Assembly: GCF_900143245.1 (NCBI RefSeq)
Contig: NZ_FRDK01000004.1
Location: 62,001-126,000, forward strand
DNA: 64,000 bases
Direction of reading: 5' to 3'
Source of the DNA: Flavobacterium fryxellicola
Lineage (GTDB): Bacteria > Bacteroidota > Bacteroidia > Flavobacteriales > Flavobacteriaceae
The notes beneath the pieces are model-generated. The model did not search any database. It saw nothing but the letters and a program-made list of their open reading frames with translations, and was not told the origin of the DNA. Below are positions 35,360 through 50,889 of this stretch, piece by piece. Both the position numbers and the translations under genes were made by a program. Positions within the stretch are counted from its first letter, which is position 1. Every line of letters starts with the position of its first letter.

Positions 35360-36712
35360 CTATTTATTCTTGTCTTTTCTCTTTTTATCTCTTGTTTTTA
35401 GCATGTTTCTATTTACAGAACCATGTGTTTTTTTCTTAGTTACCCCAGGTCCACCTAAGTTGACTTTCTTATTCTTTTTACTTTTCTCCTGAAAAGCACC
35501 ATCTCCGTCTAGTTTCTGTTTTTTCATCATAAACTTAATCGGCTGTCTGTCTTTTTCAGGTTCGATTAATTTTGAGGAAATTTCAACTGTTTCTGGAAAG
35601 GATTCGATGGCTAATTCCATATTCATCAACACTTCAATTTCTACTTTATATTCCTCTTCACGAGGGGCAATCATGCTTACTGCGGTTCCTTTGGCATCGG
35701 CACGACCTGTTCTACCTATTCGGTGCATATACAATTCAGGTAATTCGGGCATTTCGAAGTTAACAACATGGGTAATATTCGAAATATCCAGACCTCTTGC
35801 CATAATGTCCGTCGTAATTAGACCTCGTAAGTTTCCTTCTTGGAACGAAGCCATCGTGCTCAAACGATAATTTTGAGATTTATTTGAGTGGATTACTCCA
35901 AATTGACCCTCAAAATCTTCCTCGATGCGTTCATGAACCATATCTGAAATCTTCTTATTATTCACAAATACCAAAACACGACTCATGTCTTCGTTGTTTT
36001 GCAGCAGGTGTTTTAGAAGATTTATTTTGGTATTAAAATTGGGAACCTGATAGGCTGTTTGCTTGATGTTCTCTAATGGTGTTCCCGAGGCAGAAAGTGT
36101 CACTTCTTGAGGATAATCAAAATAGTCATTCAAAATAGCATCTACTTCATCCGTCATCGTTGCCGAGAAAAGAATGTTTTGACGTTTTTTAGGCATCATA
36201 GCCAAAATTGATGTAAGCTGAGTACGGAAACCTAAATTTAGCATTTCGTCAAACTCGTCAATTACTAGCTTTTGCATTTCTTCAAAACGAATCACATTAT
36301 CCAATGTTAAATCCATGATTCTTCCTGGAGTACCTACAAGAATGTCGCAGCCTTTGTAAACGGCTGTCTTTTGGGTATTGATATTAACACCTCCAAAAAT
36401 TCCAATTGTTCGCACCGACATGTATTTTGTCAATTTCTCTACTTCTTCCACGACTTGAACTACGAGCTCCCGTGTAGGAACCAGAATCACTATTTTGGGA
36501 GTATGTCCCGGAGTAAATTTGTATAACTTTAGCAATGGCAATAGGTAAGCAAATGTTTTACCCGTACCCGTTTGAGCGATTCCCATCATATCTCTTCCTG
36601 ACATAATCACAGAAAAAGTTTTTTCCTGAATAGGAGTAGGTGTTGTGAATCCTAGATCGTCTATCGCTTTTTGTACGGATTTAGGAAGATTGAATTGCTC
36701 AAAAGTAGTCAT
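35360..36712 (-). CDS. DEAD-box RNA helicase with a DEFD Walker B
   Basis: The 450-residue ATP-dependent RNA helicase has Q-motif F-x-PTPIQ, motif I AQTGTGKT, Ia PTREL, motif II VIDEFDEML (residues 152-155 are Asp-Glu-Phe-Asp instead of DEAD), motif III SAT and motif VI HRIGRTGR. A basic tail (KKSKKNKKVNLG) probably binds RNA. The Asp and Glu needed for catalysis are kept; Ala to Phe is a known kind of variation. The start MTTFEQFNL is supported by a -7 box (36729-36736). The frame is open upstream, but that ATG would lie before the promoter. Confidence 0.9.
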   Translation of the reverse strand: MTTFEQFNLPKSVQKAIDDLGFTTPTPIQEKTFSVIMSGRDMMGIAQTGTGKTFAYLLPLLKLYKFTPGHTPKIVILVPTRELVVQVVEEVEKLTKYMSVRTIGIFGGVNINTQKTAVYKGCDILVGTPGRIMDLTLDNVIRFEEMQKLVIDEFDEMLNLGFRTQLTSILAMMPKKRQNILFSATMTDEVDAILNDYFDYPQEVTLSASGTPLENIKQTAYQVPNFNTKINLLKHLLQNNEDMSRVLVFVNNKKISDMVHERIEEDFEGQFGVIHSNKSQNYRLSTMASFQEGNLRGLITTDIMARGLDISNITHVVNFEMPELPELYMHRIGRTGRADAKGTAVSMIAPREEEYKVEIEVLMNMELAIESFPETVEISSKLIEPEKDRQPIKFMMKKQKLDGDGAFQEKSKKNKKVNLGGPGVTKKKTHGSVNRNMLKTRDKKRKDKNK

Positions 36713-36728
36713 TTGCTTAAATTTTTTG

Positions 36729-36736
36729 CAAAGATA
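36729..36736 (-). promoter_or_regulatory. -7 box of the helicase gene
   Basis: On the minus strand the sequence is TATCTTTG (TANNTTTG), 17 bases before ATG 36712. It makes the helicase separate from the upstream response-regulator module. Confidence 0.4.
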
Positions 36737-36811
36737 GTCTTTTTGAAAGTAATGCGGAAAACCAAGTGGATTCAAACCATTTTTGATTCTATTTTCAACT
36801 TTTTTAGGAAG

Positions 36812-37198
36812 CTAATTATTTAATAATCGCTTTACTCGCAACACTAACTCATTTGGATTAAACGGTTTTGCAATAAAATCATCAGCACCTAGTTTAAATG
36901 CTTCACTAACAGAATTTTTTTCTTCGCCTAAACTGGATAACGCAATTATAGCTTTTTTATCAAAATGACTTCTGACAAAACGGATTACCTCCAAGCCAGA
37001 TTTATAAGGCAATAGCAAATCAGTGATCACCATGTCTGGATTTATGGCATGCAATTGCTCAATAGCGCTCAGTCCGTCTTTTAAGATGGTCAGCTGATAC
37101 CCTTCCTTACTTAAAATGAACAGAAGTATTTTGATCATTAGTTCATCATCTTCAATGATCAGTATTTTTTTGTCGCTATTCATCTTGAGATATTTCAT
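36812..37198 (-). CDS. Single-domain response regulator, module A
   Basis: The 128-residue CheY-like receiver has no output domain: acidic pair EDD (16-18), phospho-acceptor Asp60 in VITDLLLPYKSG, Ser88 and Lys111 in AKPFNPNE. The tail PNELVLRVKRLL is identical to that of the receiver at the other end of the cluster, so the two are paralogues. The ATG overlaps the DUF4838 stop (ATGA), so they are translationally coupled; a second ATG 15 bases on is an alternative start. No histidine kinase is nearby, so the partner kinase is elsewhere. It must work by binding another protein, such as a HEAT protein or glycosyltransferase of the cluster. Confidence 0.85.
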   Translation of the reverse strand: MKYLKMNSDKKILIIEDDELMIKILLFILSKEGYQLTILKDGLSAIEQLHAINPDMVITDLLLPYKSGLEVIRFVRSHFDKKAIIALSSLGEEKNSVSEAFKLGADDFIAKPFNPNELVLRVKRLLNN

Positions 37199-39429
37199 TT
37201 GTTATAAAGCTCAATTTCGTCAATCATTACCATTGGTTTTTTATTTTTTCGCTTTCGCCAAACAGGTAAATCATCTTGGTTGTGTATGACTAATTTAATT
37301 TTGTCAAAAGAATGGAAGCTTGTATCTGTTAGCTCTATTTCGCTAGTTTTTACTTCATAAGTTTCTACTAAATTTACGATTTTTTTTTCAGTTATCAGAT
37401 TCCATTTTTTGTTTTTGTATCCAAATAGGGTGATTTTTTTTGGAAGAAAAATCCAATTCCGTTGGTTATCCAAAAAGTGAAGCTGAATGCGATTAAAATC
37501 TAATCTGTTGGTTATCAATTCTATTTCAGGATTGTTTCCATACCATCCAGTCCAATTGATATTGTAGTCCGTATGCCCTTTAATTCCATCTACTAGTGAG
37601 GAGCTTCCTTTTGCAGAATATTCAATTGCTGGCGGTGTTATAAAATTAACTTCTAGTTTTTCTCCAAGGTGTGTGGCTGTATTTTTAGTAATTTCCAGCC
37701 AGTTTTCATAATATTTATTGGGCGATAATCCCTCCTCGCTCAGTTCATAAATTCCCAATGCGTTGCAGGCTTCTGCAAATTGGAGTACTCTTTCAGTAAG
37801 TCCTGCTTTAACTTCTTTTTTTCCTTCAGTGGTGATCACGAACATTCCGTGTTTATCAGTGCCATAAAACTTAGACTGTTCAAAAAACACATATTCTAGC
37901 GTGAGTCTTAATTTATTTATTCTGGAGTGTAGAACAGGATCTTCACGTACTGACATCGCCGCTTCATTCAGTAATTGGTCATATTGGTCGATCGCTTTTG
38001 GTGATAAAAATGTATTTCTGTTTTGAATTGGACCAGAGTAAATGTCTAAAGGGCGATTTGAATTTTCTTGATTTTTAGTTAGCAAATTGAGATATTCTTT
38101 GACCGCAGAGGAGGCATTACCATAGAATCCTCTTAAGAAATCATCTGTAGTGTCTTCCAAATCTATTTCGGTGTTCCACAATAATTTAGCTAAAAGATAC
38201 TGTCTCAATTCCGAAAAATCTCCGGGAACATCTGCATAACCTTGGACAAATAGTCCTTTCACATTATTTTGTTTGAAAAGTTTATAGTTATCCGAAAAAG
38301 TATGAATGTTTGGAAATGGAGATAAGTAGTTTGAAAACTGAACCGTATAATCCCATAGGTACAAATTAGAAGTAGTTTTTCCCCACGTGTGCAATATGTT
38401 GATAAAAGGTTTGTTCTCAAGATCGGCTGCTATTGATTTTCCTCTATTCAATTCAATTGGACAAAATAAGGTATGAATATTAGGTCGAATTTTTAAATTT
38501 ATTGGGGCTTTATAAGTATGTTGGTATGCCAGAGTGGCTATTTTTGTTTTAGGAAAATGTTTGGCAATTTTGTTGAGAAAAAAGTATAGAGAACCTTGTG
38601 GTCCGCCGTGTTTTTCATTTAATGATTTGCATTGTTCGCACTCACAGTAAACGGCATCGTCATTTTGACTTACCGATATAAATGATGCATTGGGATTTTC
38701 AGCACTAATTTGAGAAATTTTTTTTATGACCTTTTCAACTACAAGTTCACTGGTCATACAAAGCGATTCTGGTCTTCGCTTTCCTTCGTAAAAGGCAAAA
38801 AATTCAGGATTTGTTTTAAAAAATTCTTTTGCAGGTAACAAGGTCTGAAATGAATGTCCCCAGATACTAAAATCATTTAGATGCCAGTCTAATTTATGCC
38901 AATCCCTGAAATCTTCATCAAAGGCATCTGGATAAAATAGGACTCGGTATTCAAAAGAAGGATGGTGTGTTTTATCTGTATTTTTCGGAAAAACAACTTT
39001 TTTTAATTTTGGGAAATATAGGTCTTGTGCAGTGAATTTTCTAAATCCCCAATTTTCAAGTAAAGTATAAATGGCATAACGAAGAAGTTTTTCGTTGGGT
39101 GCAATCAAATAAATATCCTTTTCATCACTTTTGATGCGGAAACTATTTTGGTCTTTTTTATTTTTTAACTTTGAAATAACAAGGTAAATGGAGGAGGCCA
39201 TTTTTTTAGGTTCATCATTTGTTTGTACTAAAAATGGATTTGTAAAACTTTTATCTAAGTAAGTTTTTAAAATTTCCGCAGCAGGTTTGGCAATTTCGTC
39301 GTGAATGATAATCGTATTTTCATTCCCTGTTTCATTCTCAATTATGATATTAGATTGAGCCATAGCTTGCGAGTTAAAAAGAACTATAAAAAATAGCGTA
39401 TAAATTAAGTTCAGACGTATGATAAACAT
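37195..39429 (-). CDS. DUF4838 glycosidase-like protein with C-terminal carbohydrate-binding domain
   Basis: The 744-residue secreted protein has a signal peptide (about 1-24, ending AMAQ). An N-terminal alpha/beta domain like those of GH20/GH67 enzymes (YAIYTLLENWGFRKF) precedes a DUF4838 barrel with the characteristic cysteine motif CECEQCKSL and HTWGKTTSNLYLWDY. A C-terminal galactose-binding-like (F5/8 type C) domain (about 605-740) starts at NINWTGWYGNN. DUF4838 is related to alpha-glucuronidase/hexosaminidase folds, but its reaction is unproven. Synthase-dependent exopolysaccharide systems usually encode a periplasmic hydrolase, and this could fill that place in module A. It overlaps the response regulator start and follows the barrel gene by 4 bp. 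Confidence 0.8.
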   Translation of the reverse strand: MFIIRLNLIYTLFFIVLFNSQAMAQSNIIIENETGNENTIIIHDEIAKPAAEILKTYLDKSFTNPFLVQTNDEPKKMASSIYLVISKLKNKKDQNSFRIKSDEKDIYLIAPNEKLLRYAIYTLLENWGFRKFTAQDLYFPKLKKVVFPKNTDKTHHPSFEYRVLFYPDAFDEDFRDWHKLDWHLNDFSIWGHSFQTLLPAKEFFKTNPEFFAFYEGKRRPESLCMTSELVVEKVIKKISQISAENPNASFISVSQNDDAVYCECEQCKSLNEKHGGPQGSLYFFLNKIAKHFPKTKIATLAYQHTYKAPINLKIRPNIHTLFCPIELNRGKSIAADLENKPFINILHTWGKTTSNLYLWDYTVQFSNYLSPFPNIHTFSDNYKLFKQNNVKGLFVQGYADVPGDFSELRQYLLAKLLWNTEIDLEDTTDDFLRGFYGNASSAVKEYLNLLTKNQENSNRPLDIYSGPIQNRNTFLSPKAIDQYDQLLNEAAMSVREDPVLHSRINKLRLTLEYVFFEQSKFYGTDKHGMFVITTEGKKEVKAGLTERVLQFAEACNALGIYELSEEGLSPNKYYENWLEITKNTATHLGEKLEVNFITPPAIEYSAKGSSSLVDGIKGHTDYNINWTGWYGNNPEIELITNRLDFNRIQLHFLDNQRNWIFLPKKITLFGYKNKKWNLITEKKIVNLVETYEVKTSEIELTDTSFHSFDKIKLVIHNQDDLPVWRKRKNKKPMVMIDEIELYNK

Positions 39430-39433
39430 ATTT

Positions 39434-40702
39434 TTAGAATTTATATTGCAACATTAGCGATAATTCCAATTCATTTTGGGTTAAGTTTCGAACATATTCC
39501 TGCTTGTTGTAAGTAGCTTGAAGGCCCGCTATGTAGTGTTTGTAGAACATTTTGTAATATCCTGCACCCATTCGATATGAATCAAGCGAGATTCTTTCTT
39601 TGAAAAGTCCCAGAGTGGTTCTCTCTTCTGGAGAGGAACCATAACCAGAAGTCAAAGTTACATAATCAAACCGAGTTTCAAAGTAATACCTAATGTTTAG
39701 ACTGACTGTGGGATAGAAATTATTGTTCTCGCTTTGAATAAAAGTTCTCAGATTAATCCAATACGAGCCAATGTATTTTCCCGCCCCAAGAACAACCGTT
39801 GTGAAGTCATTATCTTGGGTTTTTAAATAGCGAATGCCCAAATCGCCTTCCCAACCTTTTTTAAAATTCTGATAAAAGGAATATCCAAGTCTAAATTTGG
39901 GAAAAACAAGATCGTTGCTGTAAGCTGCACCCAAATAGGAGTAGTTGTTTTTGCCAGTAAAAAGATAAGATTCTAATTCATATTGAATGCCATTTGCAAT
40001 ACTTTGTCCAGAGGATAAGCGATCTGCATAATTGATATGACCGGTCAATGATCCCCACTGACGCTCTCTTATATATTGAAAACCTAATAAATGCCATGGG
40101 CCATATCCTTTCCTGTCAAAAGTGGTGTAGCTGTAAGTTGAGCCCATTCGGTCTGATTTTAACTTTGACTCCATTTGAAAAATAAGTTGCCTTACAGCAT
40201 CGTCATTTGGGTTTTTTAATTGTAATTTTTTTAAATATTCATACTCTCTTTTTTGCTCTTTTTGCAATTGTAAGACCGTTAATTTTTTTTGTTCAAAATT
40301 TTTACTTTCTGGATGTAATTCGATTGCTTTGTCAATGATACTTTCAGCTTCTTTGTAATTTTTAGTTTCCAATTCAAGGTTTATTAAATAATTTAAGGCG
40401 TCATCATTGGCTGGACTTTTGCCAATGTAATATTTATAATAAAACCGCGCGCTGTCATTCTTTTTTACTAAATCATAATTACGTCCCAGAAGCAAATAAT
40501 AATCTACATAAGTAGGAGCAATTTTTATTCCTAACAATGCTCTTTGGATGTTTTTTTCATAATTCTTAGTTGTTTGCATGTCCTTTACAATGACCGTGAG
40601 CAAACTATCCGAATCAATTTTTTGTGCGGATAAATTTTGGTGGGACATAAATACTAAAATTAGTATGAAGCTGGCGGTTCTTAGAATTTTGTTTGGGATC
40701 AT
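39434..40702 (-). CDS. TPR-YaiO outer-membrane barrel, module A
   Basis: 422 residues from MIPNKILRT: signal peptide (about 1-25, ending LSA), TPR-like helical repeats (about 30-180; YYLLLGRNYDLVKKN and NYKEAESIIDKAIELHPES), then a YaiO-family barrel (about 190-422) ending in LSLMLQYKF with the terminal aromatic residue. Its start overlaps the glycosyltransferase stop (ATGA). TPR plus barrel is the architecture of PgaA and BcsC, which export polymer through the outer membrane. YaiO barrels are smaller, so a pore or docking role is inferred, not shown. A longer start 81 bases upstream would lack a signal peptide at its N-terminus. Confidence 0.8.
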   Translation of the reverse strand: MIPNKILRTASFILILVFMSHQNLSAQKIDSDSLLTVIVKDMQTTKNYEKNIQRALLGIKIAPTYVDYYLLLGRNYDLVKKNDSARFYYKYYIGKSPANDDALNYLINLELETKNYKEAESIIDKAIELHPESKNFEQKKLTVLQLQKEQKREYEYLKKLQLKNPNDDAVRQLIFQMESKLKSDRMGSTYSYTTFDRKGYGPWHLLGFQYIRERQWGSLTGHINYADRLSSGQSIANGIQYELESYLFTGKNNYSYLGAAYSNDLVFPKFRLGYSFYQNFKKGWEGDLGIRYLKTQDNDFTTVVLGAGKYIGSYWINLRTFIQSENNNFYPTVSLNIRYYFETRFDYVTLTSGYGSSPEERTTLGLFKERISLDSYRMGAGYYKMFYKHYIAGLQATYNKQEYVRNLTQNELELSLMLQYKF

Positions 40703-42141
40703 GATGTTACTTTTTGGGTGGTTACAAATCCTTTTCGAACCATGACGCCCCACTTTTGTTCTGTTTGTCTGATAAACAACCAATATCCCTTCAATGAGGC
40801 ATATACATTTAATGGATGGTAAACAAAGGGCTCTATTATAGCCATAAAAATGAAGATTGCTAATTCTTTATAATTGGCATAACTTTTATACAATAAGTCG
40901 TCTATAAAAATAGAAATCAGCGTAATCAATAAATAAAAAAGATAGACAAACAACGCTACTGAAACAAGATATTCAACATTTACTGAATTGTTTAAAAAAC
41001 CAATAAGTAGCGCAATAATTCCCAGAAATTCTATGATAGGAACTAAGAGTTCGAACACAAAAAAGAAGGGCAAAATTAAAAAAGCTGTTTTTCCATATTT
41101 GGGATTTAAAAACATTTTTCGGTGCAAGTACAGGGTTTGTATCAGTCCTCTTGCCCAGCGAGTCCGTTGTCTGAGTAGTACTTTTCTAGTCTCAGGAACT
41201 TCGGTCCAACACAAGGATTCTGGAATGTATTTGATTAAAAAAGGTTCTTTTTTTTCATGCATGTGTTTTCGCATCCGGGTGATAAGTTCCATATCTTCTC
41301 CTAATGATTTATGCCAGTAACCGCCAACTTTTATCGCTATTTCTTTATCGAACATTCCCAGACCACCTGAGACTAATAACAATCCATTGATTTGACTCCA
41401 AGCCATCCTCCCAAAAAGGAAGGATCGTACATACTCTAATTCCTGAAATCTAGGATACCAGTCCTTAGGAAAATGTACCTGATGCAAAAAGCCTTCTTTC
41501 ACCTCGCAAGAATTTGAAATTCTAATTCCAGCACCTGTTGCGATTACCCGTGTTTCATTTTCCATAAAAGGCTTCGCTAATTTTAAGAGGGTATCAGTTT
41601 TCAAAATGCAATCTACATCCGTGCATAAAAATAAGGGATATTGCGATGAATTGATTCCTGCATTAGAACCGTCTGCTTTACTTTTTCCGTTCACTTTATC
41701 CATCACCATCAACTTTGAATATATGGGGTTGGTCGATTTATAATGTCCTCGAACTGGCATAGTCACGATTCTTTCTTGGTAATAAAAATCAACTTTAACA
41801 AGTTCAAATTCGGTTATCAATTTGGTTAAAGTATCATCTGTACTACCATCATTGACAATAATAATTTCGTACTTAGGATAGGTTAATGACAACAAAGACT
41901 TTACATTATAGACAATACTGACACCTTCATTAAAAGCAGGTGCTACAACTGAAACTCCCAGTAGGTGATTTGATCGTATTAATATATTTTCCGAAATGTA
42001 TTTTTGATATCTGAGATGTTTCAGTATCGCAAAATAGGAGAGAATTGATAAGACGATGTAAATTAAAATATAAGTTAGCGAAAAAAGCGAAATGAAAATT
42101 TCGTAGTAGTAAATAATTTGATGGGTAAAGTTATTTATCAT
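40699..42141 (-). CDS. Processive family-2 glycosyltransferase, module A
   Basis: The 480-residue inner-membrane polymerase of the PgaC/BcsA/NodC type has two N-terminal helices (about 10-40), a GT-A domain with NDG (Asp98), TDVDC (Asp175 and Asp177), GED (Glu282, Asp283) and RQRTRW (Gln325, Trp329), and four C-terminal helices (about 345-440). These are all the D,D,D,QxxRW residues of processive synthases. The acceptor-region motif reads GKSKADGSNAG, one residue longer and different from the GKADALNMG of its module-B paralogue. There is no PilZ domain. It probably polymerises a beta-linked sugar and feeds it to the barrel protein. Confidence 0.85.
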   Translation of the reverse strand: MINNFTHQIIYYYEIFISLFSLTYILIYIVLSILSYFAILKHLRYQKYISENILIRSNHLLGVSVVAPAFNEGVSIVYNVKSLLSLTYPKYEIIIVNDGSTDDTLTKLITEFELVKVDFYYQERIVTMPVRGHYKSTNPIYSKLMVMDKVNGKSKADGSNAGINSSQYPLFLCTDVDCILKTDTLLKLAKPFMENETRVIATGAGIRISNSCEVKEGFLHQVHFPKDWYPRFQELEYVRSFLFGRMAWSQINGLLLVSGGLGMFDKEIAIKVGGYWHKSLGEDMELITRMRKHMHEKKEPFLIKYIPESLCWTEVPETRKVLLRQRTRWARGLIQTLYLHRKMFLNPKYGKTAFLILPFFFVFELLVPIIEFLGIIALLIGFLNNSVNVEYLVSVALFVYLFYLLITLISIFIDDLLYKSYANYKELAIFIFMAIIEPFVYHPLNVYASLKGYWLFIRQTEQKWGVMVRKGFVTTQKVTS

Positions 42142-43202
42142 TAGATATAGATTGCTCTTACATGTTTTGTCATTTTTGAGGTGTCATAATCTTGAGTAGC
42201 TAGAACATCTAGCCCTGTTTTATCTATTTCGTTTAAACAGTCAACTGCTTTTAATTTTAGGTCTTTATTGGTTTCATAGCATATTATATTTTCTAGAAAA
42301 GAGAGTATACTTTCATCGCCGATTACCTTTAATGTTTCTATTATTTCTATTTTGAGCTCAGGTGTTACTTGGTCAAAAATCCGTACTAAATCCTCTTTGG
42401 CTTCAATCAAAAAGAGTTCTCGTATGGCAATAATAGCTTCTTTTTTTATGCTATTGTCCTCTATTTGAATCAATTCAATAATTTCTTTGGCGCTGCTTCT
42501 ATAATTGTAAAAAACCATTATTTTAAGTCCTAAATTTATAACTGAAGCGTTAGTTGTCTTAAGCCACTGGTCAATGTTTTTAGGAATTGGAATTTTTTTT
42601 TCATGCAATATGTCCATAATTTTTATCATATTCAATTGCGAAATTCCTGCTGATAATTCCAGAAAACTTTCCATGTGATTTTCAGACAAGGAGATATAAG
42701 CCATGTTAGCATTTGATTGAATTACAATATTGGGGTGTTTCAAATACGTTTTGATTAACGAACGCCCTTTTTTATATTCTAAAGCTTGGTAGTGAAAAAA
42801 TCCTTCACATTTATAAAAACTTCTAAAATCGCGAATTAATCCTTCAGAATATTTATCAAGATGTAAACCTTGGTAAAAAATTGTGATTTGCTTGGATACC
42901 TTTCCCTTCAAACTTCTCTTAAAACGAATCATGTCGTTAATGATCATTTCCTTACACCAGGATTTATGAAGTGGAATCTCTTTTTTAAAAAGAGATAATT
43001 TTGTTCTGAATTTTTCACTATTCGGTTTGGAGAGAATCATCTCCGTCAAAAACGTCTCCGCCTTATTGCTTATTGATTCTTTAAGGGGTTTATTGCGCTC
43101 ATAGCGTATTCTTTTCAACAACAAAATAAGCGCTAGAAATACGGTCAATAGCACCATAAATGGGATTATGTAATTTTCTAGGTATTTGATGAATAAGGCC
43201 AT
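42141..43202 (-). CDS. Membrane-anchored HEAT-repeat protein, module A
   Basis: 353 residues from MALFIKYLENY: one N-terminal helix (about 10-32) and a cytoplasmic alpha-helical solenoid (about 60-340). Clear HEAT-like units near the end include SIKKEAIIAIRELFLIEAKEDL and LKLKAVDCLNEID. The start shares one base with the glycosyltransferase stop side (TAATG), so expression is coupled. A paralogue sits in module B in the same position relative to its glycosyltransferase. HEAT solenoids are protein-binding scaffolds. Linking the receiver to the polymerase is my inference. A start 72 bases upstream is open but not similar to the paralogue. Confidence 0.75.
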   Translation of the reverse strand: MALFIKYLENYIIPFMVLLTVFLALILLLKRIRYERNKPLKESISNKAETFLTEMILSKPNSEKFRTKLSLFKKEIPLHKSWCKEMIINDMIRFKRSLKGKVSKQITIFYQGLHLDKYSEGLIRDFRSFYKCEGFFHYQALEYKKGRSLIKTYLKHPNIVIQSNANMAYISLSENHMESFLELSAGISQLNMIKIMDILHEKKIPIPKNIDQWLKTTNASVINLGLKIMVFYNYRSSAKEIIELIQIEDNSIKKEAIIAIRELFLIEAKEDLVRIFDQVTPELKIEIIETLKVIGDESILSFLENIICYETNKDLKLKAVDCLNEIDKTGLDVLATQDYDTSKMTKHVRAIYI

Positions 43203-43465
43203 GATTAGCAGTGTTTTATAAGTTAATATTACATATAAAATAAAGCTAAAAAAAATATTTTCGACGTATAACATTTAAATCCTTCAAAAGACATGTTCTA
43301 AAAAAAGACCGGAATAGATTAAATAAGATGTAGTTTTTTGGAATTCATTTTAACAAATCCCGATACTTTTGAAAGGAACTAAGTAGTTTAGTTTTTTTGT
43401 AGTTAAGTGGGAAACGGTACATTTTTTTTAAACATTAACTCCAAATTATGTTTTAATAAGCAACA

Positions 43466-43500
43466 AAAATTCTTCTTTCATGGAGTGAAAGAAGAATTTT
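43466..43500 (-). terminator. Terminator between modules B and A
   Basis: A perfect 15-bp stem (AAAATTCTTCTTTCA at 43466-43480 with 43486-43500) and a 5-base loop. It lies just after the YaiO stop of module B. Module A therefore probably has its own promoter in 43203-43460, though I could not find a convincing one. Confidence 0.75.
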
Positions 43501-43537
43501 ACAAGATTAAAATTGTACTGAAAAAGCGTTGTCTCTT

Positions 43538-44803
43538 TTATTTGAACTTTAAATTCCATGAAACGGTTAGCGAATAAATCCAAAAATAATTGCCAGGGTC
43601 AAAAGCTATTTCTTGATGTGCTATGTCAAATTGTGCACCCCAAGCTTCTTTGTTTTTATCAGTGGTAAAAAAGTAGCCCGCATTAAAGCGCTGTGTTTTT
43701 AGGTTAATAATGGCGGCATCGTTAGCATCAAATATAAATTGATTGGCTTCAGGAGACACTCCCATACTGAATAAAAAACTCAAATAGTTTTCGGCATTGC
43801 TGCGGTATTTTCTATAATTCAAAGCTGCTGATGTACTGGTCCCTCCATCACCTGGAGTAAAATTAGGGCGCAAAGACCAAAAACTGTTTCCCGTGTACCA
43901 GCCAATAGAACCGGTGTAAATTGTAGTTGTTGCACTGTATTTTAAAGTTCTAAAACCAGCCGAAACTTCTAAACTATGGGGCAGGGATTTGTATAGTTCC
44001 CCACCATATCTTAAATCGGGAAAAAGGAAGGTATTGGCAAAACCTACATTTACGTATGCATATAGGCCTTTTGCAATTTTAGGATATAAATCAAATTCTA
44101 TTTGAGAACCATTCTCATTAAAACGGCGGTTGAAATTATATTTTCCAATAATGCTGCCATATTTTGTTTGCTTAGCATAACTCAATGTATAATATTGCAT
44201 TGGGTCAAAGGTTTTTGAGTAAAGATCTACCGCAGCTCGCAAGCCTATATCGTTAGTTCGCAGGGTGCTGTTTAAATCGCTCAGAAACTCTTTTGATTTT
44301 TTATCATCCGGATTTTGCGCAATATACGTTTTAACAGTATTTCGAGCCTCTACCGCGTTGTTTGTATTAGTAAGAGCAGTTGCCTTCAATAAAACAATTT
44401 CTAAATCATTTGGAAATATTTTTAGCGCCTTATTAGCCATTTCTAGCGCTTCATAGTATGAATCACTCCATGATTCGTTTTTAATTGCTGCAATCCAAGT
44501 GTCTTTGTGCTGTAAATCTTTCTCTAAAATACTCGCAAATACTTTTCTTGCTTTTTTATAGTCTCCATCCCAAGAATAAGTTGTTCCCAAAAATAAACGA
44601 ATATCATGATAATCAGGATATTTAGTCAAGATATGTAGTAAGGTATCTTGCGCTTGTTTTCGTTGCTGGTTGAACGCTAAGTTGCGCGCTGTTTCAAAGG
44701 AAGTATCGGGGTTTCCATTATAGGCTTTTTGTTGTCCTTGCATTTGTAAGAAGCCCAACAACGCCATTAAAAAAGTCAGTTTTATAATTATTTTTGGAAT
44801 CAT
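43538..44803 (-). CDS. TPR-YaiO outer-membrane barrel, module B
   Basis: The 421-residue protein has a signal peptide (about 1-23), TPR repeats (about 30-175; YSWDGDYKKARKVFASIL and ALEMANKALKIFPNDLE), then a YaiO barrel (about 185-421) ending WNLKFK. The TPR part is strongly similar to the C-terminal extension of the sulfatase encoded just upstream. The start overlaps the sulfatase stop (ATGA). E. coli yaiO adjoins a family-2 glycosyltransferase gene (yaiP), which supports a link of YaiO with glycan synthesis. Export of the polymer through the outer membrane is inferred. Confidence 0.82.
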   Translation of the reverse strand: MIPKIIIKLTFLMALLGFLQMQGQQKAYNGNPDTSFETARNLAFNQQRKQAQDTLLHILTKYPDYHDIRLFLGTTYSWDGDYKKARKVFASILEKDLQHKDTWIAAIKNESWSDSYYEALEMANKALKIFPNDLEIVLLKATALTNTNNAVEARNTVKTYIAQNPDDKKSKEFLSDLNSTLRTNDIGLRAAVDLYSKTFDPMQYYTLSYAKQTKYGSIIGKYNFNRRFNENGSQIEFDLYPKIAKGLYAYVNVGFANTFLFPDLRYGGELYKSLPHSLEVSAGFRTLKYSATTTIYTGSIGWYTGNSFWSLRPNFTPGDGGTSTSAALNYRKYRSNAENYLSFLFSMGVSPEANQFIFDANDAAIINLKTQRFNAGYFFTTDKNKEAWGAQFDIAHQEIAFDPGNYFWIYSLTVSWNLKFK

Positions 44804-47190
44804 TTTTTTAGGGATTTTTTAAAATTGGAGTATTCTTTATTTTCAGGACTTCTTGCGGTAAGACTGTCAATAGTCTTGTTTGATTCTTTAAAATTATTCA
44901 TTCTTTTATAAGCTTGTGCCAATTTATAGCCTAATTCGGGATCGTTTATTTGATTGCCTAATGCTTTTTTACCAATGTCAATTGCTTTTTTATCTTGTCC
45001 AGACCACCAGTAGACATCCATTAGTGCTAAGTAGGAATCACCATAATAAGGCGTTCTGCGTATAACTTCTTGTAATTCTATTTCAGCATTTTTATAATCG
45101 CCATCCCAAGCTAAGGTTCGGCCTTTTAGCGTTCGCACGTCTCCATAATTGGGAAGTTCATTCAAAATATAATTGCATAATAGTCGTGCTTTTTCACGTT
45201 CTTTTTTGAAAGCTAAATCTCGAGCCAAAAAGAATATATGGTCAGGATCCAATCCTTTAGTTAGTTTTTTAATGATCGATAGCTCCTCTGTTGTAAATTC
45301 ATACGTTGGTTTCTTAAAGCTGGAAGCAATTTTGGTAATTTTGTTCTTTTTTGTTAAGTATGAATTTAGTTTTTTAAAATCATTAAATGAACTGCTTACT
45401 TTTTCGGTCATATCGTTATCTGTTTCGCTAACATTGAAATTTTCATCAATTTTAAACAACGCTCCATCAGAATAAAAATAGTCTTTATAAATATAATCAC
45501 TAATACTTCCTTTGTATCGCATCAACGCAATGTTGTGGATATTTCTAAATTCTCTTACAGTGTCTAGTCCTGTACTGATCCAAGTCGTTTTTTCCGGTTT
45601 ATTGAATTTGTAATTGTTCGTTAGAAAAGAGACTAAACTTGGTGTAACATCAGAATGAGAAGAAATGGATTTAAATTTTGCTGTTTTCTTCAGCATGGGA
45701 CTGTACATGTAAAACGGAACGTGAAAACGAGATAAATTATCTTTTTGAGGAACGGGAATTAAGCGGTGATCTCCAGTTATTATGAAAATGGTATTTGCAT
45801 AATCCGGTCTTTTAGCATACGTTTCCATGAAGGTTTTGATGGAACTATCCGTGTAAAGAAGACATGCAAAAATGTCTTTGTATTCCTTTAGTTTATTTTT
45901 TTCAAAATAGGATTTGGTTTTTAGAATGCGTTCGACTTTTTCCAAATATACTTTTTTTGATGGGAAATCAAAAGGTTCGTGATTGGTTAGCGTCATTATA
46001 ATATCCAATCTAGGTTGTTTGTTGTCTTTTAATTCGGATAGTGTTTTGCGGTATATTTCAGCATCTGGATATCCCCAAGAAAAGCCACCCGAATTTGCTT
46101 TAGTCTTAATATATCCTGGGCCAAATTTATTGATGTCTATAATTTTATCGATACCATTGTATTCTAAAAAAGCACTTTTTCTATCAAATGTAGATTCATC
46201 GCCACAATAATAACTAGTAGCATATCCATTTGATTTTAGAAAACTGATTAGCGAATTGTGTTTCGGTAACGGATTTAATTCCATGAAACCATTTTCTCCA
46301 AACGGCAAGGAGCCCATCAATGAAGGTAGCGCGCCAAAGGTACGTCCTGCATTACTTACAAAATTTTCCCAATAAAGTGATTTCTCTGTCAAAGAATCGA
46401 GGTAAGGCGTGAAGCCTTTATAATCGCCCTCATCAGTAAAATCGCTGCCGAGTCCTTCCACAATGATGAATACAATATTCGGATTGTCCTTACTAATAGT
46501 AAAAAAGGGAGCCAATACATCTTTAGTGTTTTCTGAGGCTTGTTCTAATGGAAATTCTTTATTAAAAGTCATGCTTCCTTCATTTGCAAAAGCTTGATCA
46601 TTTTTAGCTCTTATAATGTCACTCAATAAGAAATTTAGTTTATTCTTGGTAACAGGTTTCTGGTTGCTAGCGACTAAAAAATTCAAACTGCCAAATAATA
46701 AAACGACTACAAGTATAATTTTTGCGTTGGCTTTAGGCCCCTGTTGTTGTAACAATCGGTTTAATCCTAAATAAACAACAGGAAGAATAATAAACGGCAA
46801 AAATAGCAGAAAAGATAGCGATAAAGAGGCAGTAACAGTGGTGTACATATCACTCCAAGAATATCCTAGAAGATCAGCTCCAAGATTGATATGCGTTGTA
46901 AGACTATATCCTATTAATCCAAGTTGGATTAAGGCAATGATGGAAAATAGAATTCGGATAACAATTATTCCTAAAGAATTTTTCACATATTTTAATACTG
47001 CATAAAGCGGGAAAAATAATAAACCAATAAGTATTCCTGTAAAAAAATCATCCAATAATTTGTACAGGAATAACTGTATTTCGAAATTTTTGAAAATTTC
47101 AATCAAGCTTAATAGACAAAATATAAGGATTAATGAAACGGTAGAATAAAGGTATTCCAAACTGTTTTTATAATTAAATTTCATTTTCAT
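44800..47190 (-). CDS. LTA-synthase-like sulfatase fused to YaiO-type TPRs
   Basis: 796 residues from MKMKFNYKNS. Five membrane helices (about 12-175) precede an extracytoplasmic alkaline-phosphatase-superfamily domain (about 235-540) with IVEGLG (metal-binding Glu245), NAGRTFGALPS (nucleophile Thr284) and TGDHR. This is the lipoteichoic-acid synthase/phosphoethanolamine transferase branch. Residues about 653-796 form TPR repeats (LAWDGDYKNAEIEL) that closely match the TPR part of the YaiO protein encoded next. It likely transfers a phosphate-containing group, or cuts one, on the glycan outside the membrane. An ATG 51 bases upstream lies inside the glycosyltransferase gene and is less likely. 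Confidence 0.85.
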   Translation of the reverse strand: MKMKFNYKNSLEYLYSTVSLILIFCLLSLIEIFKNFEIQLFLYKLLDDFFTGILIGLLFFPLYAVLKYVKNSLGIIVIRILFSIIALIQLGLIGYSLTTHINLGADLLGYSWSDMYTTVTASLSLSFLLFLPFIILPVVYLGLNRLLQQQGPKANAKIILVVVLLFGSLNFLVASNQKPVTKNKLNFLLSDIIRAKNDQAFANEGSMTFNKEFPLEQASENTKDVLAPFFTISKDNPNIVFIIVEGLGSDFTDEGDYKGFTPYLDSLTEKSLYWENFVSNAGRTFGALPSLMGSLPFGENGFMELNPLPKHNSLISFLKSNGYATSYYCGDESTFDRKSAFLEYNGIDKIIDINKFGPGYIKTKANSGGFSWGYPDAEIYRKTLSELKDNKQPRLDIIMTLTNHEPFDFPSKKVYLEKVERILKTKSYFEKNKLKEYKDIFACLLYTDSSIKTFMETYAKRPDYANTIFIITGDHRLIPVPQKDNLSRFHVPFYMYSPMLKKTAKFKSISSHSDVTPSLVSFLTNNYKFNKPEKTTWISTGLDTVREFRNIHNIALMRYKGSISDYIYKDYFYSDGALFKIDENFNVSETDNDMTEKVSSSFNDFKKLNSYLTKKNKITKIASSFKKPTYEFTTEELSIIKKLTKGLDPDHIFFLARDLAFKKEREKARLLCNYILNELPNYGDVRTLKGRTLAWDGDYKNAEIELQEVIRRTPYYGDSYLALMDVYWWSGQDKKAIDIGKKALGNQINDPELGYKLAQAYKRMNNFKESNKTIDSLTARSPENKEYSNFKKSLKK

Positions 47191-47201
47191 TGCGCTATAA
47201 T

Positions 47202-48632
47202 TTATGCTTTGGTCATTCCTTTTCGGGTCATCTCTCCCCATTTCTTTTTTTTGTTAAAATAATAATCAAAATTTCCTCGTATTGCGGCATATAAAATGAA
47301 AGGATGATTAACAAAAGGTTCTAAAAAAGCAATTTGTAATAAACGAATACCAGTTCCTTTCTTTTTATACTGATGATAAGTTAACTCTTCTGTAATCAAT
47401 GCTATTAAAGAAAAGAAAACTGTAAATAAATAGGCTAAAATAATCAAAGCAAATGCATAATCCCACCTAATCTTATTAAATACAATGAGAATTCCAAAGT
47501 ACAGTATGCCAATAAATTCAATCACAGGAGCCATTCTTTCGAAAAAGAACCAATAGGGATAACTCACCAATCCCAGTACCCTGTATTTAGGATTAAATCC
47601 AATTTTACGATGTTTTCTTAAGGTCTCGATCGTTCCTCGAGTCCATCTGTTTCTTTGAGAAATAAATATTTTATAGTTGTCAGGAGCTTCTGTCCAACAA
47701 AGTGGATCTGGAATATAGGCTACTTTATATATTTTGTTCTGTTCTTCCATGTAAGCTCTCATCCGCACCACAAGTTCCATATCTTCACCAACCGTATTTC
47801 GATCATAGCCGCCCACCTTAATCGCAATTTTTTTATCAAATAAACCAAAAGCACCTGAAATAACTAACAAACCATTCAGTCTACTCCATGCCATGCGACC
47901 TAACAAAAAAGCGCGAATGTATTCTAAAATTTGCCCTTGTTCGATTAGTTTTTTGGGGAAGTTTACATCGTGTAATTTACCTCCTTTGACCACACATGAA
48001 TTCGCAATTCTAATTACTCCTCCAGCAGCGATAACTTTTCTATCCGTTGTTTCTAGAAATGGTTTGATCATTATTTGGAGGGAGTCTTCTAATAGGAGAC
48101 AGTCTACATCTATACAAGCCACATATTCACTGTTACTAATGTTAAGTCCCATGTTTAAAGCATCGGCTTTTCCTCCATTTTCTTTATCAACTATAATTAG
48201 TTTTTCAAATGCAGGATTCGTTGATTTGTAAATTCCGTTTCTAAGGGGTTGGGTTGGGATTTGTTCGTTGATGAGGTAATCTACTTGGACTAAATTATAT
48301 ACTTCAATTAATTTCTCTAAGCTATCGTCTTTACTGCCGTCATTTATTATAATTACGTCGTAGTTTACATAGTGATTAGACAATAAAGAACGTACATTTT
48401 CAACAATATTTAAACTTTCATTATATGCTGGTGCTATAATTGAAATGGAAGGAGCGCTATCTGAAGACATTATTTCTTTGTAGTTAACATAACTGTTTTT
48501 ACGCTTGTACTCGACAGTCTCTATTACAGAAATAAACGCAAGAACAAGGTAAGACGCTATAGCACTGCCACTAAAAATAAAAAACAAATAGTGAAATAAT
48601 TCAATTATATTTTGGATTATAGGGTCTCCCAT
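47202..48632 (-). CDS. Processive family-2 glycosyltransferase, module B
   Basis: The 476-residue inner-membrane synthase is paralogous to the module-A enzyme across its whole length. It has two N-terminal helices, NDG (Asp98), IDVDC (Asp175, Asp177), GED (Glu283, Asp284), SQRNRW (Gln326, Trp330) and C-terminal helices (about 350-450). The motif GGKADALNMG is the canonical form. It has no PilZ domain, so cyclic-di-GMP control of the bacterial-cellulose type is not seen. It starts 2 bp after the HEAT stop and ends 11 bp before the sulfatase start. Confidence 0.85.
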   Translation of the reverse strand: MGDPIIQNIIELFHYLFFIFSGSAIASYLVLAFISVIETVEYKRKNSYVNYKEIMSSDSAPSISIIAPAYNESLNIVENVRSLLSNHYVNYDVIIINDGSKDDSLEKLIEVYNLVQVDYLINEQIPTQPLRNGIYKSTNPAFEKLIIVDKENGGKADALNMGLNISNSEYVACIDVDCLLLEDSLQIMIKPFLETTDRKVIAAGGVIRIANSCVVKGGKLHDVNFPKKLIEQGQILEYIRAFLLGRMAWSRLNGLLVISGAFGLFDKKIAIKVGGYDRNTVGEDMELVVRMRAYMEEQNKIYKVAYIPDPLCWTEAPDNYKIFISQRNRWTRGTIETLRKHRKIGFNPKYRVLGLVSYPYWFFFERMAPVIEFIGILYFGILIVFNKIRWDYAFALIILAYLFTVFFSLIALITEELTYHQYKKKGTGIRLLQIAFLEPFVNHPFILYAAIRGNFDYYFNKKKKWGEMTRKGMTKA

Positions 48633-48634
48633 AC

Positions 48635-49738
48635 TTAATTGTTTTCTATAAAATTAACGATTCTCAAAAAAGAATCGTCAGAGGATTCCCTTTTTAAAGA
48701 ACAGAATTTTTCTCGATTGATTCTTTTTAAAATTTTCAAGGCTATAATTTTTATTTCAAAAAGGTCATCATAGATATATTTCATTATAAAGGATTCGTCG
48801 TCATTTTCGTATAAATTTTCAATCATTTTAAAAACAGCGATCTGCTCTTCTTGACTGCGTTTTTGTAAATCCGTTTTTAAAATTTCTTTAGCTTCCAATA
48901 CATTTAAATAGCTTAGTACATCAATTGCTTCTAGCCTTACTTTTTTATTAATATGATGTAATAACTGTATGATCTCATTTTTTGCTTCCAATTGATTATA
49001 GATCTTGGCTAATTTTAGCGCAAAAATAATCACGGAGTCATTCGAAGATTGCAACCAAGATGTAATATTAGAAATGTTTTGATTTTCTAATTTTTGCAAA
49101 ATTTCCAGTAGTTGAATTTGATCCCATTCTGAAAGGGGTGTTTCTAATAAATCTAAAAAAGTAAGTCCTTCAAAATAAAATAAATTGACCATATACAATT
49201 GCATTTCCTTTCGAACTTCTGGTCTAGGATGATTTAGGTGGATTATTACCGGATTATAAGCTTCCTTTATCTGAAATTGTTTTAATTCTCGAATTCCTTT
49301 GGCAATCACATACCATTTTTTATGACTTAATCGAGACAAAGCATAATCGACAAGTTCCGTTTGATAATAAAGATTTTGGATAGACTCGGCAACTTCACCA
49401 GAAATTTCATTTTTTAACTTGAGCAAAACTGCAATTAAAATTTTTCTTTTAAAAGGTTCTTTTGCACCGTTTTTTAATAAATCAATAATCGCTTGCTGTT
49501 CTGAGCTGATTTCTTCTTCATCATTTCCGGCATACAAATAAGTGATAAGAGCAGCTTCATATTCTTGCTCATAAGCAACAGTGATGCTTTCTTTTTTTCT
49601 TAAATGGCCTCTTAAATATTTCAAATAAAGAATGAGTCCAAGAATCAATATTGAAAACAAACCAATTACAATCCAAGTGGCTTGAATGATAGTTGGAGAA
49701 TCATTAAAATAATCGATTAAAAAGCGGTAGGTATTCAT
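48635..49738 (-). CDS. Membrane-anchored HEAT-repeat protein, module B
   Basis: The 367-residue protein has an N-terminal helix (about 19-42; ATWIVIGLFSILILGLILYL) and a cytoplasmic helical solenoid. HEAT units include NHPRPEVRKEMQLYMVNLF, INKKVRLEAIDVLSYLNVLE and FEIKIIALKILKRINRE. It is similar in layout to the module-A HEAT protein, with low overall identity by eye. It lies between the receiver gene and the polymerase gene, as expected if it relays the receiver signal to the polymerase (inferred). Confidence 0.78.
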   Translation of the reverse strand: MNTYRFLIDYFNDSPTIIQATWIVIGLFSILILGLILYLKYLRGHLRKKESITVAYEQEYEAALITYLYAGNDEEEISSEQQAIIDLLKNGAKEPFKRKILIAVLLKLKNEISGEVAESIQNLYYQTELVDYALSRLSHKKWYVIAKGIRELKQFQIKEAYNPVIIHLNHPRPEVRKEMQLYMVNLFYFEGLTFLDLLETPLSEWDQIQLLEILQKLENQNISNITSWLQSSNDSVIIFALKLAKIYNQLEAKNEIIQLLHHINKKVRLEAIDVLSYLNVLEAKEILKTDLQKRSQEEQIAVFKMIENLYENDDESFIMKYIYDDLFEIKIIALKILKRINREKFCSLKRESSDDSFLRIVNFIENN

Positions 49739-49769
49739 ATCGAAACTTACGGGTAATTCATTAGGACTT

Positions 49770-50138
49770 TTAACTCAATAAGCGTTTTACTCTAAGTACT
49801 AGCTCGTTTGGACTCAAAGGTTTACTCATGAAATCAGTAGCGCCTAGATCAAATGCTTTGAGAACAATTTGCTCTTGTCCTGCTGCTGAAAAAACGACTA
49901 TAGGAGTTAGGAGATTTAATTTATTTCTTACATGGCTGATTACTTCTAATCCGCTTACAAAAGGCATCATAATGTCTGTTAATATTAACTCTGGATTATG
50001 TTCTTCTATTAATTCAATTGTTTTCTTACCATTGTCTGCGATAAAAAGAGAATATCCCTCTTTTTCTAATTTGAATTTAAGTAACTTCGAAAGCATCGAA
50101 TTATCTTCAGCGAGAACAATTTTTTTAGCACCATTCAT
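49770..50138 (-). CDS. Single-domain response regulator, module B
   Basis: The 122-residue receiver has no output domain: Glu11 and Asp12, phospho-acceptor Asp55 in LILTDIMMPFVSG, Ser84 and Lys106 in SKPLSPNE. The tail PNELVLRVKRLL matches the module-A receiver. It is the first gene of the ten-gene run and has a TATTTTTG -7 box 28 bases upstream. No kinase is nearby. It may bind the HEAT protein encoded next. Confidence 0.87.
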   Translation of the reverse strand: MNGAKKIVLAEDNSMLSKLLKFKLEKEGYSLFIADNGKKTIELIEEHNPELILTDIMMPFVSGLEVISHVRNKLNLLTPIVVFSAAGQEQIVLKAFDLGATDFMSKPLSPNELVLRVKRLLS

Positions 50139-50166
50139 AGTAGATTAGCTTTGTTTTTTGCGAAAG

Positions 50167-50174
50167 CAAAAATA
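50167..50174 (-). promoter_or_regulatory. -7 box of module B
   Basis: On the minus strand the sequence is TATTTTTG (TANNTTTG). Transcription would start near 50160 and lead into the receiver ATG at 50138. No TTG element is evident. Confidence 0.45.
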
Positions 50175-50889
50175 TTAATTTTCGTTGGATGTTGGTAAAA
50201 GCTTGTGGCTTTCTACCATTTGTATTTTGATTTTTATCAAAGTAAATGTTTACCATAGCTTTGACTACTGCCATTTTTGTATTTTATTACCGAGCACTGC
50301 AATTAAATTAAAGGAAACACTCTATTTACGTGAAATTATCTATGTTGGTTTTAACGATTTGATTTCTGTAATTTAACACCAAACTTTATAGTAAGCGAAT
50401 TTGGGTTTTAGTACGAACTGTTTCTTCATTTTATAAATAGTTATACGCTATCCATCATACTGTTATTGTTCGTTTTGTGCATTTTTTAAAGGGCTTCACA
50501 CAAAATAAATAATATTCAATATAGTGAGATGGCTATTTATTTTCACCAACAGGATTCATAAATAATGGTAGATTATTAAAATGTACTAGAGAAAAAAGGA
50601 AAAGAAGTTTTATGCATTTCGTCCTTAGATTATCGGGAAGATCGAACCGATAAATTGCATCTTTCAATCCCATTTGAAAGTGATTTGATTGGGGTTGAAA
50701 ATGACTATTAAACGCAATACTATTTAGCAGCAAAAGACAAAAGTAGGTTTTCATGTTTTTGTTAAATTTAAGTTGAAATTTGTAAGTACATATATCACAA
50801 TTACAGTAGTGGGGACTATTGTATCGCAACTATATGGAATAAAGATAGATATAATAGTAATATAAAAACTAAAATATCCCTGTAGAGTA
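50175..50889. other. Long spacer upstream of module B
   Basis: About 700 bases separate module B from the TIGR02757 gene. The only candidate gene is a 73-residue secreted peptide on the minus strand (50533-50754). I see no repeat, tRNA or strong hairpin. It could hold regulatory sites for the cluster. Confidence 0.5.
50533..50754 (-). CDS. Putative small exported peptide
   Basis: Seventy-three residues from MKTYFCLLLLNSIAF, which looks like a signal peptide, followed by a short Phe/Asn-rich mature part (LPDNLRTKCIKLLF; ending NPVGENK). No family is recognised and the mature part could be non-coding. It is on the same strand as module B and about 400 bases upstream. A fragment of a degraded gene is an equally good reading. 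Confidence 0.3.
   Translation of the reverse strand: MKTYFCLLLLNSIAFNSHFQPQSNHFQMGLKDAIYRFDLPDNLRTKCIKLLFLFSLVHFNNLPLFMNPVGENK

What the first reader, a model, noticed from the sequence alone, without database searches (positions are those of the whole stretch)
36812..50138. Duplicated ten-gene cluster: candidate exopolysaccharide export system with HEAT protein and receivers
Seen: ten consecutive minus-strand genes form two modules that share four parts: CheY-like receiver, membrane-anchored HEAT protein, processive family-2 glycosyltransferase and TPR-YaiO barrel. Each module adds one periplasmic enzyme (LTA-synthase-like sulfatase in B, DUF4838 protein in A). Genes overlap by ATGA/TAATG or are separated by a few bases. 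Known: Pga and Bcs systems pair a family-2 synthase with a TPR-plus-barrel exporter and a periplasmic enzyme, under cyclic-di-GMP control. Inference: this is a related synthase-dependent system with no PilZ or GGDEF part, controlled by receiver plus HEAT proteins, duplicated and diverged for two polymers. I know of no described system with this gene set.
Basis: partly seen in the sequence, partly recalled or inferred. Interest (0 to 1): 0.88.

Follow-up and report, generated by a model that had tools for sequence, protein, structure and literature searches.

The report
Receiver-HEAT-controlled exopolysaccharide synthase modules in Flavobacterium
Two neighbouring gene sets of a Flavobacterium each look like a machine that makes and exports a sugar polymer, and their core (a signal receiver, a membrane-anchored HEAT protein and the polymer synthase) recurs in many Bacteroidota that mostly lack the usual cyclic-di-GMP control, so it may be how they switch such polymers on and off.

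Summary
The ten genes are there, but as two tandem five-gene modules separated by 263 bp with a terminator-like hairpin. The HEAT + family-2 glycosyltransferase pair is conserved: of 57 HEAT loci fetched from 395 Bacteroidota genomes, 56 have the glycosyltransferase directly downstream; of 80 loci found by the glycosyltransferase, 76 have HEAT directly upstream. A lone receiver lies nearby in 47 of 57 and 71 of 80; hybrid-kinase-like genes lie near 27 and 40. The own genome has no GGDEF or PilZ match; GGDEF is absent from 46 of 53 and PilZ from 53 of 53 HEAT-bearing genomes. Trees speak against duplication in place: modules A and B belong to two separate lineages, each found alone elsewhere, that share one chromosomal site in Flavobacterium where contents are swapped and fused. 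Best reading: a c-di-GMP-independent synthase-dependent exopolysaccharide system whose synthase is gated by a phosphorylated receiver through a membrane-anchored HEAT scaffold. Polymer, phosphorylation and binding are inferred. New variant of a known kind; ten searches of open-licence papers found no description.

The parts
49770..50138 (-). RR_B: stand-alone CheY-like receiver of module B, phospho-acceptor Asp55 and Lys106 present
   Evidence: Response_reg; phospho-Asp in 110 of 112 module receivers, Lys in 112 of 112
48635..49738 (-). HEAT_B: one N-terminal membrane helix, then a HEAT solenoid, read as cytoplasmic
   Evidence: HEAT_2; AlphaFold2 pLDDT 93; hydrophobic stretch 21-39, followed in the sequence by basic residues; HEAT/armadillo-type matches
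47202..48632 (-). GT_B: membrane family-2 glycosyltransferase, best NCBIfam model PgaC/IcaA (132 bits, cut-off 422)
   Evidence: catalytic motifs invariant in 23 aligned
44800..47241 (-). SULF: LTA-synthase/OpgB-like alkaline-phosphatase-superfamily protein with five predicted membrane stretches and C-terminal TPR
   Evidence: 3lxq; E262, T301, D491, H492
43538..44803 (-). YaiO_B: TPR + YaiO outer-membrane barrel
   Evidence: PF19413 E 2.7e-60; TIGR04390
43466..43500 (-). terminator-like hairpin between module B and module A
42141..43274 (-). HEAT_A: membrane-anchored HEAT protein of module A (likely start at codon 25)
40699..42141 (-). GT_A: family-2 synthase of module A
39434..40711 (-). YaiO_A: TPR + YaiO barrel (likely ATG near 40702)
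37195..39429 (-). DUF4838: probably exported protein, distantly like beta-N-acetylhexosaminidases
   Evidence: weak structural agreement
36812..37198 (-). RR_A: stand-alone receiver of module A, encoded at its far end

Best explanation
Each module is a synthase-dependent exopolysaccharide machine whose synthase is controlled by a two-component receiver instead of c-di-GMP. A histidine kinase (often a hybrid kinase encoded next door in relatives; elsewhere in this genome) phosphorylates the lone CheY-like receiver; the receiver docks on the cytoplasmic HEAT solenoid, which is tied to the inner membrane beside the synthase; this switches the PgaC-like GT2, which polymerises and pushes a glycan (likely HexNAc-containing) through the membrane. 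In the periplasm an LtaS/OpgB-like transferase (module B) decorates the chain, or a hexosaminidase-like DUF4838 protein (module A) trims or binds it, and the TPR + YaiO barrel exports it. Shown by sequence: the parts, their conserved linkage, their lineage by module, the receiver phospho-site, absence of GGDEF/PilZ matches. Inferred: phosphorylation, receiver-HEAT-GT contact, the polymer, the direction of control.
For: HEAT followed by GT2 in 56 of 57 fetched HEAT loci, in 10 family codes; HEAT just upstream in 76 of 80 GT loci. Lone receiver within 6-7 genes in 47 of 57 and 71 of 80, directly upstream of HEAT in 28 of 57 and 52 of 80, against 50 receiver matches in the whole own genome. Large receiver-bearing ORFs (400 aa or more) near 27 of 57 and 40 of 80; the four examined are all HisKA-HATPase-receiver, three with an HPt match, one of these under its cut-off. 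Phospho-Asp in 110 of 112 receivers. In 3 of 3 genomes with two modules and a receiver in each, receiver, HEAT and GT have their nearest relatives in other genomes, not in the sister module; in 2 of the 3 (G000, G245) all three parts also match one module type (G273 is the exception for its A-type module's receiver). Trees separate winA from winB in all four parts. HEAT model pLDDT 93. Relatives with LysM-like or SPOR-like parts ahead of the membrane helix place HEAT in the cytoplasm (both matches under cut-off). GGDEF absent in 46 of 53, PilZ in 53 of 53. Best GT model is PgaC/IcaA; DUF4838's only solved-structure matches are hexosaminidases.
Against: No wet data. A lone receiver was not found near 10 of 57 and 9 of 80 loci (some at contig ends), and the chimeric loci L055, L063, L064 have none. 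One GT locus, L157, has 1.7 kb upstream and no HEAT match in its 5-kb contig. No natural receiver-HEAT or HEAT-GT fusion appears. None of eight flanking window proteins is a kinase. YaiO was not near 11 of 57 and 12 of 80. 7 of 53 genomes have GGDEF. At the site where the matched hexosaminidase has Asp-Glu, DUF4838 has Asn-Asp (N256-D257, invariant in 5 rows) and its model is poor (pLDDT 54.6), so enzyme activity is unsure. The receiver of L065 (G273) is nearest to receivers of non-A modules, and L056's receiver is outside the A clade. The identity correlations partly reflect shared species history.
Confidence: 0.58

Rival explanations
1. Receiver and HEAT form a localisation or assembly scaffold: HEAT, anchored in the membrane and in some relatives perhaps to peptidoglycan, positions the synthase and the receiver steers placement, not catalytic activity.
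For: HEAT solenoids are generic protein-binding scaffolds (one search matches are HEAT/armadillo binders); LysM-like and SPOR-like N-terminal parts in L059 and L065; HEAT is even more constant beside GT than the receiver is.
Against: HEAT_B and HEAT_A of the window have no peptidoglycan-binding part. The receiver's full phospho-site suits either role.
Confidence: 0.2
2. The receiver acts elsewhere, for example in a phosphorelay to a transcription factor, and merely travels in the operon; HEAT is a constitutive synthase subunit like PgaD or IcaD.
For: Some loci lack the receiver but keep HEAT-GT; chimeras L055, L063, L064 keep HEAT_A-GT_A without a receiver nearby; L065's receiver does not follow its HEAT and GT.
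Against: Receiver ancestry follows HEAT and GT by module in G000 and G245 and for winA and winB in the trees.
Confidence: 0.17
3. The modules make a non-secreted or envelope-bound glycan (an OPG-like periplasmic glucan or a lipid-linked glycan) rather than an exported exopolysaccharide.
For: SULF is closest to LtaS/OpgB-type models, which act on lipid-linked or periplasmic glycans (recalled).
Against: TPR + YaiO outer-membrane barrel near 46 of 57 and 68 of 80 loci.
Confidence: 0.12
4. One reading: one five-gene module duplicated in place and diverged.
For: Tandem order, four shared parts, 45% GT identity.
Against: Each module's nearest relatives are modules in other genomes, in four trees; both kinds stand alone at the same site in other Flavobacterium. 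No AU test was run.
Confidence: 0.05

Closest known systems
Pga (PNAG) system, PgaABCD
   Same: GT2 synthase with PgaC/IcaA as best model; TPR + barrel exporter; a hexosaminidase-like protein in module A (PgaB also carries a hydrolase domain, recalled)
   Different: PgaC and PgaA models far under cut-off; no PgaD or deacetylase match in the ten proteins; receiver + HEAT instead
Bcs cellulose system
   Same: GT2 synthase, TPR + outer-membrane barrel export, an alkaline-phosphatase-superfamily transferase (BcsG, recalled) like SULF
   Different: No PilZ domain and no BcsB match; CelA model 24-40 bits against 699; no PilZ match in the genome
E. coli yaiO-yaiX-yaiP-yaiS cluster
   Same: YaiO barrel close to a GT2 gene
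   Different: YaiP and GT_B 26% over 239 columns; E. coli YaiO and YaiO_B align only marginally by BLAST, E 0.024; no HEAT or receiver annotated there, but acyltransferase remnants and a deacetylase
LtaS / OpgB phosphoglycerol transferases
   Same: Membrane stretches then an alkaline-phosphatase-superfamily domain; metal/nucleophile residues E, T, D, H kept (roles recalled)
   Different: All such models far under cut-off; extra C-terminal TPR; fused to the GT in a number of relatives
PorX (T9SS response regulator)
   Same: Receiver of RR_B matches the PorX model's receiver part (60 bits, cut-off 300)
   Different: PorX joins receiver and PglZ domain in one protein (recalled); here a lone receiver

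Membership tests
Pga/PNAG synthase system | GT2 over the PgaC/IcaA equivalog cut-off | tested here: not met
   132.1 and 113.8 bits against 422.3
Pga/PNAG synthase system | PgaD partner and PgaB polysaccharide deacetylase | tested here: not met
   no such Pfam domain in the ten proteins
Pga/PNAG synthase system | TPR + outer-membrane barrel exporter of PgaA type | tested here: inconclusive
   TPR + YaiO barrel present, but PgaA model 18.6, 19.3 and (SULF's TPR) 34 bits against 366.65
Pga/PNAG synthase system | product is poly-N-acetylglucosamine | not testable with these tools
   needs glycan chemistry
Bcs cellulose synthase system | PilZ-bearing c-di-GMP-activated synthase | tested here: not met
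   no PilZ in the ten proteins or in G000
Bcs cellulose synthase system | CelA/BcsA equivalog | tested here: not met
   23.8 and 40.1 bits against 699.1
Synthase-dependent exopolysaccharide systems (broad kind) | membrane GT2 with catalytic motifs | tested here: met
   D98, DxD 175-177, ED 283-284 and QxxRW 326-330 invariant in 23 of 23 aligned GTs; processivity not testable
Synthase-dependent exopolysaccharide systems (broad kind) | TPR scaffold and outer-membrane barrel | tested here: met
   both YaiO proteins over curated cut-offs
Synthase-dependent exopolysaccharide systems (broad kind) | a secreted polymer made by the synthase | not testable with these tools
   needs deletion strains and glycan analysis
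Two-component receiver | acidic pair, phospho-Asp, S/T, Lys | tested here: met
   both window receivers by sequence; family counts
LtaS-type transferase | LTA synthase equivalog | tested here: not met
   45.9 bits against 970
GH20/GH84 hexosaminidase | catalytic Asp-Glu or Asp-Asp pair | tested here: inconclusive
   remote match E 1.7e-4; Asn-Asp (N256-D257) stands at the aligned Asp-Glu, both invariant in 5 rows while D258 is not; model poor

The most novel reading that the evidence does not exclude
A Bacteroidota-wide class of polysaccharide synthases in which a phosphorylated CheY-like receiver, bound to a membrane-anchored HEAT solenoid, directly gates the GT2 enzyme: post-translational, c-di-GMP-free control of exopolysaccharide secretion, with swappable periplasmic tailoring enzymes that give different polymers from one chromosomal site.
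Probability: 0.43. Interest if true: 0.78.

Novelty: new variant of a known kind. Interest (0 to 1): 0.6.

Why it matters
The best-known synthase-dependent exopolysaccharide systems are targets of c-di-GMP (established knowledge), yet the genome studied here and 46 of 53 genomes with this system have no GGDEF match, and none of the 53 a PilZ match. A conserved receiver-HEAT-synthase triad gives a concrete, testable answer to how such bacteria could regulate matrix polymers, and names genes that can be deleted in laboratory strains; a Flavobacterium johnsoniae strain carries a related locus (L151).

Tried and rejected
In-place duplication of a five-gene block: disfavoured by four trees; no AU test was run. 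Membership of Pga or Bcs: rejected on cut-offs and missing parts. DUF4838 structure: the 5-sequence model was poor (pLDDT 54.6), so its GH115/GH20/GH84 matches (also xylose isomerases and others) count only as agreeing with the remote sequence match. A HEAT profile search gave 150 of 395 genomes at E <= 1e-5, but the weak matches are largely partial ones that fit HEAT repeats in general, so I kept the single-sequence count of 53 of 395. Promoters of the Flavobacterium type (TTG-17/23-TAnnTTTG, recalled): no full match directly upstream of either module; the TAnnTTTG half alone occurs at 50167, 29 bases before RR_B, one of 59 on that strand of the window. The ~390-aa neighbour of YaiO in other families gave no family and only a chance-like PDB match. 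Papers: three were opened for passages only (PMC12419801, PMC7807042, PMC10434189) and do not describe this system there; the rest were seen as listings.

Rows left out: one search lists 61 match places; 57 were fetched (not fetched apart: the two in the window, the second of G142, which lies inside L037, and G377:C21). L092, the weakest match, is the one of 57 without GT. Of the four GT loci without HEAT directly upstream, L110 and L173 begin at a contig end, L158 has HEAT with one ORF between, and L157 is a true miss in a 5-kb contig. Trees used 77 of 134 GT, 50 of 134 HEAT, 49 of 109 YaiO and 41 of 112 RR rows, chosen for spread; receivers of L037/L094 were left out. Fused GT-SULF rows were cut to their GT or SULF part. 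Trees are quick searches with SH-aLRT support only.
Full report
What is there. The window is part of a 3.71-Mb genome (G000) close to Flavobacterium omnivorum (L094, GT 96% identical). Ten minus-strand genes lie at the stated place. In transcription order: module B is receiver, HEAT, GT2, LtaS-like protein with C-terminal TPR, TPR-YaiO barrel; module A is HEAT, GT2, TPR-YaiO barrel, DUF4838, receiver. Within modules the ORFs overlap or lie within 31 bases; between modules there is a 263-bp gap with a 15-pair terminator-like hairpin just after YaiO_B. I therefore read two tandem operons; this is not tested.

Is it more than chance? Yes. A search of 395 Bacteroidota genomes with HEAT_B matched 53 genomes, 30 of 170 genera. 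I fetched 57 of the 61 match places: 56 of 57 have the GT2 gene directly downstream on the same strand, across 10 family codes; 47 of 57 have a lone receiver within six genes, 46 a YaiO barrel, 26 the LtaS-like part, 10 DUF4838, 27 a large receiver-bearing (kinase-like) ORF. HEAT is directly upstream in 76 of 80. The misses: L110 and L173 begin at a contig end, L158 has HEAT with one ORF between, L157 has no HEAT match in its 5-kb contig. Receiver 71, YaiO 68, LtaS-like 48, kinase-like 40, DUF4838 4 of 80. These loci are related to one another, so the counts are not independent trials; the spread over families is the safer measure.

Two lineages, not a duplication. In the GT tree winA sits in a 10-row clade (SH-aLRT 100) of A-type modules from family codes f1 and f8, more widely with f3 and f4; winB sits in an 11-row Flavobacteriaceae B-type clade (100). 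HEAT, YaiO and receiver trees also part winA from winB, though L056's receiver and the HEATs of L056, L073 and L051 lie outside the A clade there. At one chromosomal site in Flavobacterium, after a DUF2400 gene and, where the locus reaches it, before a DEAD-box helicase gene, different genomes carry B alone (L095, L101, L103, L104, L106), B plus a DUF4838 in two ORFs (L097), A alone (L076, L084, L085), a chimera HEAT_A-GT_A fused to SULF, then YaiO_B, with or without DUF4838 (L055, L063, L064), or both (window, L037 = L094). Other Flavobacterium modules, such as that of F. johnsoniae (L151), are not at this site. HEAT and GT stay together through these swaps while transferase and exporter change sides, which is what a fixed synthase core with exchangeable tailoring and export parts would show.

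Control. The own genome has no GGDEF and no PilZ match; over the 53 HEAT-bearing genomes GGDEF is absent in 46 and PilZ in 53 (control genomes such as E. coli ring for both). The receivers keep the phospho-Asp in 110 of 112 and the Lys in 112 of 112. Large receiver-bearing genes sit near many loci; the four examined (L040, L067, L068, L146) are hybrid kinases, three with an HPt match, that of L040 under its cut-off. None of eight flanking window proteins is a kinase. In the three genomes with two modules and a receiver in each (G000, G273, G245), the receiver, HEAT and GT of a module all have their nearest relatives outside the genome; in G000 and G245 these are of the same module type, but in G273 the A-type module L065 has a receiver nearest to those of L062/L061. 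Pairwise identities of the parts correlate (GT-HEAT 0.63, HEAT-RR 0.52, GT-RR 0.43; 0 of 200 permutations reached each), which shared species history alone could partly explain.

Topology and structure. HEAT_B is predicted at pLDDT 93 as a long N-terminal helix (16-70) followed by an alpha solenoid that matches designed and natural HEAT and armadillo proteins in the PDB. The hydrophobic stretch 21-39 is followed by KYLRGHLRKK (sequence; positive-inside rule, established knowledge), placing the solenoid in the cytoplasm with the GT active site and the receiver. Relatives with LysM-like (L059) or SPOR-like (L065) N-terminal parts before the membrane helix agree (both below Pfam cut-offs).

Product. 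The GTs' best NCBIfam model is PgaC/IcaA, far under its cut-off. DUF4838 gives remote matches to a beta-N-acetylhexosaminidase (8qk1, E 1.7e-4) and, in its C-terminal part, to a beta-hexosaminidase entry (6q63, E 4e-4); the poor model points to GH115, GH20 and GH84 enzymes. But where 8qk1 has Asp-Glu, DUF4838 has Asn-Asp, invariant in the 5 rows aligned, so it may bind rather than cut. A HexNAc-containing polymer is my inference. SULF keeps the E, T, D, H residues expected of LtaS-like transferases in 69, 64, 68 and 72 of 73 sequences (residue roles recalled), so it may add phosphoglycerol or phosphoethanolamine.

Known relatives. Pga and Bcs share the plan (GT2, periplasmic enzyme, TPR + barrel) but fail membership tests here. 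E. coli K-12 has yaiO near yaiP (GT2) and yaiS (deacetylase), a looser cousin: GT_B and YaiP align at 26% over 239 columns. Ten paper searches turned up no description of a receiver-HEAT-GT2 system; I saw listings, and passages of three papers. Subscription papers and preprints were not searchable.

Verdict. A real, widely conserved Bacteroidota gene system, best read as a c-di-GMP-independent synthase-dependent exopolysaccharide system with receiver-HEAT control. The parts and linkage are shown; the mechanism is inferred.

Noticed in passing
L114:9534-10700 (-), L125:9976-11148 (+), L061:5035-6222 (-): A ~390-aa protein beside YaiO in a number of loci outside Flavobacteriaceae (L114's begins with a membrane anchor) has no Pfam or NCBIfam match in the three examined; similar neighbours elsewhere were judged by length only. 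Possibly a further part of the machine.
   Followed up: partly
L059:8908-10353, L065:8125-10038, L040:8944-11523: HEAT proteins with extra parts: LysM-like or SPOR-like N-termini before the membrane helix, or long acidic C-terminal extensions.
   Followed up: partly
window 35360-51657; L055, L063, L064, L076, L084, L085, L095, L097, L101, L103, L104, L106: In Flavobacterium the site between DUF2400 and a DEAD-box helicase holds A, B, both or chimeric modules, a small hot spot for exchange of these genes.
   Followed up: yes
L045, L048, L100, L140, L163 and others: GT and LtaS-like part are fused in one protein of about 1,140-1,300 aa, suggesting that decoration is coupled to synthesis.
   Followed up: no
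L097:15204-17437: DUF4838 of F. salmonis lies in two ORFs, possibly a pseudogene left beside a B module.
   Followed up: no
L143:11438-12658, L079, L080: A DUF763 gene follows the HEAT-GT pair in L143; L079 and L080 have a neighbour of the same length, not identified.
   Followed up: no
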